The notes under the pieces: model-generated
Told to the model about the DNA's origin: nothing
What the model saw: only the letters and a program-made list of their open reading frames with translations
Database searches by the model: none
In this document: one piece after another, positions 43,080 to 45,943 of the stretch
How the letters are laid out: every line of letters begins with the position of its first letter
How positions within the stretch are numbered: position 1 is the first letter of the stretch
Program-made: the position numbers and the translations under genes
DNA from: Alphaproteobacteria bacterium
GTDB taxonomy: Bacteria; Pseudomonadota; Alphaproteobacteria; WRAU01; Hepatincolaceae
Reading direction: 5' to 3'
Length of the DNA stretch: 64,000 nucleotides
Assembly (NCBI GenBank): GCA_009780035.1
Contig: WRAU01000008.1
Location: forward strand, 1 to 64,000

Positions 43080-43992
43080 CTAAGATTTTGTTATAATAGC
43101 ATATTTATGAATTTGCTTAGTCCACCAGTTAGATTTAAAATAGAAATCTTTTTTTCGTAAAATATATTTATGCCAAAACCAACGAACTCTTTTTTCAAAG
43201 GAATTGGTAAGATGACCAAAATTAAGAATATAAAATTTTGCTAGTTTATATTTTTGCATATATCTTGGGTCTATGAAGTCTTCCAAATATGGATAATAAT
43301 TTAATATTCCCCTTGATGTTAAGTGTTTGCGTTTAAATCCCTGTAAAACATAAGGTTTTTGAGATACAAAGTGAATAATTTTTGTAGAGGAGGATATATC
43401 TTTGGATAATCTTCTTGTGGTATTAATATATTTATCGGGTGCTTGCTGCACTTTTCCTTTATATGTATGGATAATAAATTGCTCTTCATTTAGCTTGGGG
43501 TTTAAAGTAAATTGCCGCTTAAATTCCTCTAAGATATTATCATTTCTTAAATCCTTAAGATTTATTAGCATTACGCCTACACAATTATCATCTACACAAA
43601 ATAGATTGTTTCCCATATTGGTTTCAAAAAAATCTTTAATATTTCCCAGCACTAAAACATTGGTATCTAAATGAAGAATTCTATCAACATTAGGGAGTAT
43701 TTGCGGCAGAAATAATTTAAAATATATCTCTTTAGACCAGTGCATTCTTTCTGGCAGCTGCTTTATTATTTCAAATGCCGAAATATCTATAAGATGAATT
43801 TTAAAATTATTAAATTGATTTAGAGGAAATTTATTGCAAATATCTGCTATTTCATCTTGATTTAAACAGGCATTATGAAGAAAAAAACACTCTACCCCCC
43901 CCCTTCAATTTAGAGTTGTTTTTTAGAAGGGAGTATAAAGTAATCATAGCAAATAACAAATATTCTCGGTTTATAGAAAAGGTTATATTCAT
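43080..43992 (-). pseudogene. GT8 glycosyltransferase split by a nine-G tract (phase-variable or decayed)
   Basis: The frame begins at ATG 43992 (MNITFSINREYLLFAM), three bases after the preceding gene's stop, with AGG 8 bases upstream. It meets nine G in a row (43895-43903 on the + strand as C) and stops at TAG directly after. With eight G it would read on through KGGVECFFLHNACLNQDE into the main body (LPERMHWSKEIYFKLFLPQILPNVD, then HLDTNVLV as the DxD-like metal site, here D-T-N, then HFVSQKPY), giving about 303 residues, the GT8 size. As sequenced, only the part from about 43745 could be translated. Family GT8 makes LPS outer sugars. Confidence 0.8.
43895..43903. repeat. Nine-base homopolymeric C/G tract inside the GT8 gene
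   Basis: Nine C on the + strand (nine G in the coding strand). It puts the gene out of frame by exactly one base. Such runs are very unlike the AT-rich surroundings. Confidence 0.9.
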
Positions 43993-43995
43993 TTT

Positions 43996-45648
43996 TTACC
44001 TGTTAGCCTCAAAAAAAGTTAGAATATTATTGATAAAATCTTCATTGCATTTTTCAACATCTGCCATAGTCCAATCGCCTTGTTTGCTGGCCAATTCTTT
44101 AGCTTTTAGAGATTTTGAATTTTTATAACCATCTTTTTTGTAGTTAAAACTTGAGTATTGGAGTGATTTGTTTATACTCTCTTCTAATAGAATTTTGTTG
44201 CCAAACATATTCATAGCTTTGTCAGCATCTTCTTTTTGCCAATTTGTAAAATTTGCTTTTTCCCATTTTTTTGGCAGTATATGTTCTATATTTAAGCTAT
44301 CCGTTAATTTTGCTTGGTTATTATTGGAGTAAGCATTTAGTAAAAGCAAGGCAAAAGTTAGTTTGCCCTTGTTAAAATCATTCAACCTATTTTTTATATT
44401 TTCTAAATCTTCTTGTGGAAAATTAACAGCTTCGCCTTTCCATATATTTACACATAATTTAAAAATATCATTTTTAACGGCATTAACTGTTGGATTATTA
44501 ATGAATCTTGTAAGCAAAAAAGTAATAAATTTTTTCTGAAAAACTAAAAATTCTTCATTAAAATTAGGGTTGTTCTTATTTTTTAGATAAAATAAGCTAA
44601 TAGGATGTTTCCAATAATCATTAGCATAACTATATAAAACTTGAATCTGTTTCCAATTTTCTTCTGTAAAATCTACAGGGATAGATTCTGCTTTGAATTC
44701 TCCGCCTGTGTGCAAGTATTGCCAAAATTCCACTAATTCTAAAAGATTAGGCATTATGGTTATATTTAAAATATCAGAATTATTTTTTTTGTAAAAATCT
44801 CTTAGATTGATTTCTTTTGAGGTATCATTGGTTTCAGCTCTAACTACATGGGAATATAGCCTAAATATACCGGTAATACCCATTCCGGCTTTTTCACAAA
44901 TAGATGTTAAATTTTTCCAGTCTTCTATGAAATCATTTTTATTTTCTTCTTCCGTAATATTTCTATAAATTGTGGCTTTAAAAATATCGGCATCCTCTAG
45001 TGGCAGCCCCCTGTCATTTAGCGTTTCAAAAATCTTTAATGCTGTATCTTCTTTATCGCACTCAATTGGCAGAACTACACATCTTTCTAAAACAAATAAG
45101 CATACATCCTGCCATTTTTCTGGATTAGTTTCAGCATATTTATTTAAGGCTGATAAGAAATAACTATAATTTTTGGAGTAATTATCTCTGGCATTATCTT
45201 TAGCTTTTCCGTTTGTGAGAATGCTATCAAATATCTCAATCTTATCTTCAAGAGCTACTAAAGATTGCAATTTATTATTATTTAAAAATACTTCATCTGA
45301 TAATTTATCAACCTCATATAAGCACTTTGCAACATTAGAACTAAGCCCTTTTAATACATCTTTATTTGATACTTTAAAATACATTGCTCTTAGCAATAAG
45401 AAGAATGAGGTGATTCTTTGCTACCCGTCAATGATATAAGTCTCTTTGTTATGGTTGTAAATAACTACAGAACCAAGAAAATAGTCATCTTCAGGAGAAT
45501 CATCAAAAGCATCTTCTATATCTTTCCAAAGCTGTTCGCATTTTTCAAAATCCCATTTATAAGGTCTTTGGTATTCTGGGATTGTAAACTTTTCTGTTTT
45601 GCTAAAAAAATCAAAGATACTTTTTCTTTCTGCTTTTAATTCTGCCAT
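43996..45648 (-). pseudogene. DUF262/DUF1524 (GmrSD-like) restriction protein with an in-frame TAG
   Basis: The ATG at 45648 opens MAELKAERKSIFDFFSKTE and IPEYQRPYKW, the DUF262 start; an upstream TTG at 45690 lies in a hairpin and is less likely. The frame reads YIIDG then TAG then QRITSFF. The stop replaces the first glutamine of the catalytic DGQQR motif (CAG to TAG). The same frame continues for about 470 codons to IEHILPKKWEKANF (DUF1524 HNH-like) and ends at 43996. The full protein would be about 550 residues, a fused GmrS/GmrD type IV-like system against modified DNA. As sequenced it is inactive unless the stop is read through. Confidence 0.85.
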
Positions 45649-45719
45649 TCTTTTGCCTACTATGTTGATTTTCTCCCCATTGACAGTCAATGGGTTTCTT
45701 TATATTATATAATATAAAG

Positions 45720-45768: not shown

Positions 45769-45846
45769 TGGAACAACCTAAAAGACTTGAACCTCTATAC
45801 CTGTTGCCTCTAGGGGCAACGCTCTATCCAGTTGAGCTATTTGTAA
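45769..45846 (-). pseudogene. Decayed tandem copy of tRNA-Arg
   Basis: 26 bases of D arm and anticodon stem are identical to the intact tRNA-Arg just upstream, and a 14-base T-arm block is shared. The anticodon loop has only six bases (CCTAGA), lacks U33, and the acceptor arms do not pair over seven bases; T-stem is mostly G-U. A CUA-type anticodon can be read in one alignment, but the missing U33 and acceptor argue against function. Confidence 0.75.
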
Positions 45847-45866
45847 TAATAAAAACATAAATAAAA

Positions 45867-45943
45867 TGGCGTAGCTGGGAGGACTTGAACCTCTAACCTT
45901 TGCCTTCGGAGGGCAACGCTCTATCCAGTTGAGCTACAGCTAC
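45867..45943 (-). tRNA. tRNA-Arg (CCG)
   Basis: Leftward cloverleaf: acceptor GTAGCTG / CAGCTAC perfect 7 pairs, discriminator G and encoded CCA, anticodon stem TTGCC / GGCAA, loop CTCCGAA, anticodon CCG. T arm AGAGG TTCAAGT CCTCC has one mismatch. Confidence 0.93.

What the first reader, a model, noticed from the sequence alone, without database searches (positions are those of the whole stretch)
43895..43903. Nine-G tract leaves a GT8 glycosyltransferase one base out of frame
Seen directly: the coding strand reads nine G in a row between LKGG and VECFF. With nine the frame stops at TAG immediately after; with eight it continues without a stop for about 300 residues matching GT8 (start MNITFSIN, 82 codons before the internal Met at 43745, distance 247 bases). 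Long G runs are rare in AT-rich DNA but are the classical slippage tracts of phase-variable surface glycosyltransferases in Campylobacter and Helicobacter. Phase variation in an alphaproteobacterium like this would be unusual. Simple decay or a sequencing error remain possible.
Basis: partly seen in the sequence, partly recalled or inferred. Interest (0 to 1): 0.78.

Follow-up and report, generated by a model that had tools for sequence, protein, structure and literature searches.

The report
Poly-G frameshift in a glycosyltransferase homologue
A run of nine G's puts a sugar-transferase-like gene out of frame in a small-genome alphaproteobacterium, and it belongs to a genome-wide set of unusually long G runs placed in or just before surface and (in relatives) DNA-methylation genes, which looks like an unrecognised on/off switching (phase-variation) repertoire in this lineage, although this particular gene may already be decaying.

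Summary
Nine C on the + strand (43895-43903) form a G9 on the coding strand of a GT8 homologue; the 30-codon N-terminus and the 274-codon remainder are one base out of register. One tract is not significant within the window alone (6 of 100 shuffles), but genome-wide tracts of 8 or more number 8 against about 1.3 expected, and of 9 or more 4 against about 0.2. Five of the others lie between -35- and -10-like hexamers upstream of genes, including two paralogous outer-membrane proteins; one is in frame in a surface-type acyltransferase; one is in glmU. The three held relatives, each another genus, also carry G8-G11 tracts, several in or before DNA methyltransferase genes, two of them also out of frame but otherwise open. 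This is the anatomy of simple-sequence contingency loci. Against a working switch here: the GT8 copy has lost its DxD motif (LDTN) and other conserved residues, and the adjacent GmrSD gene has a nonsense codon. No reads or same-species genomes were available, so length variation is untested. Best reading: a poly-G contingency locus in the OFF state, possibly already decaying, inside a family-wide phasome-like set.

The parts
43895..43903 (-). G9 homopolymer on the coding strand (C9 on +), at the junction of two reading frames of the GT8 homologue
43904..43992 (-). N-terminal piece of the GT8 homologue: ATG at 43992, MNITFSINREYLLFAMITLYSLLKNNSKLK; frame ends at TAG just past the tract
   Evidence: N-terminus resembles intact own paralogue L022 (YNITFSINRAHLLFASVTLYSLLKNN)
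43080..43903 (-). Main part of the GT8 homologue, open 274 codons in the other frame; PF01501; DxD motif reads LDTN
43996..45690 (-). GmrSD-type (DUF262/DUF1524) restriction gene directly upstream of GT8, interrupted by an in-frame TAG at IIDG*QR
45867..45943 (-). tRNA-Arg(CCG) at the upstream edge of the GmrSD-GT8 block
45777..45852 (-). degenerate tRNA-Arg-like copy (19 bits, below the Rfam cut-off of 29; anticodon loop containing CTAG), probably a tRNA pseudogene

Best explanation
The G9 tract is a poly-G simple-sequence contingency tract in the 5' part of a GT8 homologue, captured in the out-of-frame (OFF) state. Slipped-strand mispairing at replication would change the tract length and so toggle whether the 274-codon body is translated. 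It is one of a genome-wide set: other tracts sit in the spacer between -35 and -10 hexamers of surface and other genes, where a length change would alter promoter strength, and in related genera they sit in DNA methyltransferase genes, where a change would switch methylation (phasevarion-like). Shown: tract, frames, genome-wide excess, placement in promoter-like spacers, family-wide recurrence. Inferred: actual slippage, reversibility, expression change, surface role of the GT8 product. The GT8 locus itself may have begun to decay while OFF, since catalytic-motif residues are altered.
For: Genome-wide excess of long G runs: 8 of length 8 or more against 1.3 expected, 4 of length 9 or more against 0.20. 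All five intergenic tracts lie between promoter-like hexamers in the direction of the downstream gene: TTGCCT-16-TATTCT, TTAACT-20-TATACT, TTGATT-15-TAAACT, TTGACT-18-TAGAAT, TTGCTA-18-TATTCT; summed score 40.9 against a shuffled-flank mean of 12.7, reached by 0 of 2000 shuffles; opposite-strand scores at most 3.1. Two of these are paralogous OMP genes (one just over the Surface_Ag_2 cut-off; paralogy) whose close paralogues keep a C-rich spacer, pure C only in two of five. A second coding G9 is in frame in an Acyl_transf_3-SGNH gene; homologues encode the same site with mixed codons, so tract purity is not required by the protein. Relatives G001-G003 (three other genera) have G8-G11 tracts, in or before: type III Mod genes (G002:C48 and G003:C5 with offset frames and open bodies; G003:C21 in frame), a fused type I M-S gene (G001, in frame), a IIG-type methyltransferase plus S gene (G003:C17), and a weakly IIG-like gene with TTGACA-14-TATACT (G002:C18). 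The GT8 body is still open for 274 codons and its codon-usage score is highest in that frame. Tract lengths fit published practice: Campylobacter G tracts of 7 or more, mostly 9 or 10, are catalogued as phase-variable (PMC6321876); promoter-spacer homopolymers are known at Neisseria porA, fetA and opc (PMC2791445).
Against: No length variation has been seen: no reads, and no genome of the same species or genus was held. The GT8 copy has LDTN where the other family copies and PDB GT8 enzymes have LDxD, plus changes at further invariant columns such as G161V and N221I. The neighbouring GmrSD gene has a nonsense codon. Neither intact GT8 paralogue in this genome nor the nearest relative has a tract at this site. 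MutS is present, which damps but does not exclude homopolymer slippage. One 8-G tract lies in frame in a housekeeping gene (glmU), and the six 7-G runs look like background.
Confidence: 0.6

Rival explanations
1. Ordinary pseudogenisation: a one-base slip in a G run broke a gene already losing function; the GmrSD-GT8 block beside tRNA-Arg is decaying and the tract is a mutational hot spot, not a switch.
For: DxD reads LDTN, and N221I and G161V occur at columns invariant in homologues; GmrSD amber codon; GT8 homologues in G001 and G002 also carry nonsense codons without G tracts.
Against: The body is still open for 274 codons with no second break after the tract; a run of nine G at this site is not explained by the protein (paralogues lack the insert); the same kind of tract recurs in intact genes and promoters of this genome and family.
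Confidence: 0.3
2. Sequencing or assembly error in the homopolymer: the true tract has another length and the gene is simply intact.
For: Homopolymers of nine are error-prone in some technologies and the read type of this assembly is unknown. Frameshifts in homopolymers have been suspected as errors in a published alphaproteobacterial genome (Ehrlichia muris AS145, PMC7789307).
Against: Other long tracts (acyltransferase 9, glmU 8, G001 M-S 10, G003 Mod 10) leave frames open, so lengths are not randomly wrong. The excess of long G runs, which one-base errors do not create, remains. The DxD change is independent of the tract.
Confidence: 0.1

Closest known systems
Poly-G phase-variable surface genes of Campylobacter and Helicobacter (translational contingency loci)
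   Same: Pure G tract of 8-11 near the 5' end of a surface-type enzyme gene, frame decided by tract length; tract lengths in the same range (PMC6321876: peak at 9 and 10); several loci per genome.
   Different: Unrelated alphaproteobacterial lineage; few tracts (8 of length 8 or more); this GT8 has lost its DxD; no variation data.
Promoter-spacer homopolymer phase variation of Neisseria porA, fetA and opc
   Same: Poly-C or poly-G lies between -35 and -10 of outer-membrane protein genes, so length sets spacer length (PMC2791445 for the known system; here).
   Different: Different OMP family (Surface_Ag_2-like paralogues), no expression measurements; promoter hexamers are predictions.
Phasevarions: phase-variable type III Mod and type IIG methyltransferases (Haemophilus, Neisseria, Helicobacter, Campylobacter)
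   Same: In relatives G001-G003 long G tracts fall in or before type III Mod, fused type I M-S and IIG-type methyltransferase genes.
   Different: Found in sister genera; none of the window genome's own tracts of 8 or more G was found at a methyltransferase; methylation never measured.
Ehrlichia chaffeensis p28-Omp gene 19 promoter G-rich region
   Same: Alphaproteobacterial OMP paralogue family with a G-rich element upstream of one gene (PMC2694197).
   Different: The paper does not mention phase variation or a homopolymer tract.

Membership tests
Simple-sequence (poly-G) contingency locus | Homopolymer of at least 7-8 G/C inside an ORF or core promoter | tested here: met
   G9 at 43895-43903; criterion from PMC6321876
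Simple-sequence (poly-G) contingency locus | Tract length decides between an open and a truncated frame | tested here: met
   Upstream and downstream frames are offset by one at the tract
Simple-sequence (poly-G) contingency locus | Long tracts in excess of chance in the genome and concentrated in surface or RM genes or their promoters | tested here: met
   8 against 1.3 and 4 against 0.20 expected; five of eight in promoter-like spacers; relatives
Simple-sequence (poly-G) contingency locus | Tract length varies within a population, reversibly | not testable with these tools
   No reads and no same-species genomes; one pattern scan of viral contigs found nothing
Glycosyltransferase family 8 (sequence family) | Profile match above Pfam cut-off | tested here: met
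   PF01501, 56.9 bits, cut-off 24.3
Glycosyltransferase family 8 (catalytically competent enzyme) | DxD metal-binding motif | tested here: not met
   LDTN in the window copy; DxD in the other family copies and in PDB hits 3tzt, 5gvv and 6u4b
Promoter-spacer phase-variable OMP gene (porA/opc type), for the sibling tracts | Homopolymer lies between -35 and -10 of the gene | tested here: met
   (consensus-based, not mapped transcripts)
Promoter-spacer phase-variable OMP gene (porA/opc type), for the sibling tracts | Expression changes with tract length | not testable with these tools
   needs reporter or transcript data
Phasevarion methyltransferase (relatives) | DNA methyltransferase gene with a frame-controlling repeat tract | tested here: met
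   G002:C48, G003:C5, G003:C21, G001:C1:124398
Phasevarion methyltransferase (relatives) | Switching methylation changes expression of a set of genes | not testable with these tools
   needs methylomes and transcriptomes

The most novel reading that the evidence does not exclude
A whole family (all four held genera of what is, in the data held, an order containing only this family) of small-genome alphaproteobacteria, two of them MAGs of environmental origin, runs a poly-G phasome: frame-switched surface-modifying enzymes, porA-like spacer-tract promoters of an OMP paralogue family, and tract-switched methyltransferases (phasevarions). I found no description of such a set in alphaproteobacteria in the papers searched.
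Probability: 0.55. Interest if true: 0.68.

Novelty: new member of a known kind. Interest (0 to 1): 0.55.

Why it matters
SSR-driven phase variation is best known from mucosal pathogens such as Campylobacter, Helicobacter, Neisseria and Haemophilus. Finding its full anatomy (coding tracts, promoter-spacer tracts and methyltransferase tracts) across several genera of small-genome alphaproteobacteria would suggest that bet-hedging of surfaces and restriction, for example against phages or protist hosts, is used well outside those pathogens. It also yields a concrete list of loci whose length polymorphism can be read off existing metagenomic reads.

Tried and rejected
(1) Window-only statistics: not convincing, so genome-wide counts were used. 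(3) Naming the organism: the genome-contig scan returned only relatives, two MAGs (CANHGT010000013 and CAMCZU010000020); the own record stayed unnamed. The TLC nucleotide-carrier search found nothing, but the control genomes did not ring either, so it says nothing. (4) 7-G runs: most lie in open ORFs, one beside or in a tRNA-like stretch; treated as background. (5) glmU 8-G: in frame in an essential-type gene; not counted as a contingency candidate. (6) Viral-contig scan for the tract flank: none. (7) The tRNA-like copy with a CTAG anticodon loop was considered as a suppressor of the GmrSD TAG or of a frameshift: only 19 bits and an irregular loop, so taken as a pseudogene. (8) Class-wide 9-G counts vary widely (0 to over 300 per genome) and GC is not given, so they are not used as a significance test. 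(9) Literature: searches for poly-G phase variation in Rickettsiales or Alphaproteobacteria found no direct precedent in the library held; absence there is not proof of absence.

Full report
OBSERVATION. The + strand carries C9 at 43895-43903, G9 on the coding strand. ATG at 43992 opens MNITFSINREYLLFAMITLYSLLKNNSKLKGGG followed by TAG; the other frame is open for 274 codons from the tract and is a GT8 homologue by Pfam. Inside the window one such tract is only marginally unusual.

GENOME CONTEXT. The window lies on contig 8 of a 1.42 Mb, 17-contig genome with an alphaproteobacterial-type permuted tmRNA. The genome has 14 G/C runs of 7 or more: six of 7, four of 8, three of 9 and one of 10. 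From the decay of run lengths in the window, 1.3 runs of 8 or more and 0.20 of 9 or more are expected; 8 and 4 are seen. This is the main evidence that the tract is not a chance run.

WHERE THE OTHER TRACTS ARE. In the own genome: C10 upstream of an OMP gene (C1), C8 upstream of its paralogue (C17), G9 upstream of a multicopper oxidase (C7), G8 upstream of a 156-aa gene of unknown family (C4), C8 upstream of a 554-aa gene of unknown family (C1), G9 in frame inside an Acyl_transf_3-SGNH gene (C4), G8 in frame in glmU (C7), and ours. All five intergenic tracts fall between -35-like and -10-like hexamers in the direction of the downstream gene (spacers 15-20); the summed score was reached in none of 2000 sets of shuffled flanks and the opposite strand scores much lower. 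I chose the spacer model after seeing some of these sequences, so this p-value is somewhat optimistic; individually two of the five are strong (p of 0.002 or less), one moderate (0.02) and two weak (about 0.07). The OMP paralogues share a recognisable promoter, TTG(C/T)(C/T)T - C-rich spacer - TATGATATTCT; the C-rich element is a pure tract only in two of five. This is the porA/fetA/opc arrangement (PMC2791445).

RELATIVES. Only four genomes of the family, one per genus, are held, and the order contains no others in the data. All have tracts of 9 or more: G001 has 10, 10, 10, 10 and 9 (plus an 8), G003 has 11, 11 and 10, G002 has 9 (plus two 8s). Several lie at DNA-modification genes: type III Mod with G10 in frame (G003:C21), type III Mod with G11 near the start and frames apparently offset (G003:C5; the upstream start is a TTG and is inferred), type III Mod with G9 and frames offset but an open body (G002:C48), a fused type I M-S gene with G10 in frame at the junction region (G001), G11 upstream of a IIG-type methyltransferase with an S gene (G003:C17), and TTGACA-14-TATACT with G8 in the spacer before a weakly IIG-like gene (G002:C18). 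G001 tracts near Abi_2, ComEC and elsewhere are less clear. Of six coding tracts at candidate switch genes in the family, three are in frame and three out of frame with the rest of the gene open: the picture expected of switching genes rather than of simple loss, though the sample is tiny.

THE GT8 ITSELF. Own paralogues L019 and L022 (316 and 321 codons stop to stop) and the G002 relative L016 are intact and lack the tract; our protein has a short insertion there (SLLKNN-SKLKGG-VECFFLHN against SLLKNN-AKYYFNVYILHN). The body is codon-biased in the expected frame but weakly (0.035 against 0.07-0.09 for paralogues). It differs at 12 columns, outside the missing N-terminus, that are invariant in the other four, against 4-9 for each of them in turn; the telling changes are the second Asp of DxD to Asn (LDTN), G161V and N221I (alignment columns). 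PDB GT8 enzymes 3tzt, 5gvv and 6u4b show DxD here. So as a GT8 enzyme it fails a defining feature. Directly upstream a GmrSD-type gene carries TAG at the conserved IIDGQQR motif. Decay is therefore a serious alternative for this locus even if the tract class is real.

MECHANISM. Most likely: slipped-strand mispairing changes the tract by one G, toggling the frame of the GT8 homologue; sibling tracts modulate promoter spacing. MutS is present in all four genomes, which lowers but need not abolish slippage (that Neisseria also has MutS is from general knowledge). Shown by sequence: tracts, frames, placement, recurrence. Inferred: slippage, reversibility, phenotype.

COMPARISON AND NOVELTY. It works like Campylobacter/Helicobacter coding tracts and Neisseria promoter tracts; tract lengths match the Campylobacter distribution (PMC6321876). 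Membership as a contingency locus is met on sequence criteria; population variation is untestable here. Literature searches found no such set described in alphaproteobacteria; the nearest was a G-rich region upstream of Ehrlichia p28-Omp gene 19 (PMC2694197). Long G tracts are also abundant in two other small alphaproteobacteria sampled, so the phenomenon may be wider than one family. I file it as a new member of a known kind in an unexpected lineage.

Noticed in passing
window 43996-45690 (-): GmrSD-type restriction gene with a single in-frame amber codon replacing the first Gln of the conserved IIDGQQR motif; the rest is open.
   Followed up: partly
window 45777-45852 (-): Degenerate copy of tRNA-Arg just downstream of the intact one, with an anticodon loop containing CTAG; below the Rfam threshold, probably a tRNA pseudogene, but it sits next to a gene with an internal TAG.
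   Followed up: partly
L085-L108 (genome G057): Another small alphaproteobacterium (about 1.0 Mb, GC about 0.39) has at least eight G10-G11 tracts in a conserved context (TTGCC..GGGGGGGGGG..CCTCTAAGGCAAA), most just before or in the N-terminus of paralogous proteins with a TadE-like RRGAIIIEFAFSIPVF segment: looks like a repeated switchable pilin-like family.
   Followed up: partly
L086-L114 (genome G109, single contig 1.39 Mb): G10-G14 tracts, one in a promoter-like spacer (TTGACA-20-TATTTT, L093).
   Followed up: partly
L018 (G001) and L020/L023 (G002): GT8 homologues in relatives interrupted by nonsense codons without any G tract: this gene family is often broken in the lineage.
   Followed up: partly
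L058-L066 (own genome): Nine homologous OMP-like genes (one matches Surface_Ag_2), several arranged in pairs, five of them with a shared C-rich promoter spacer.
   Followed up: yes
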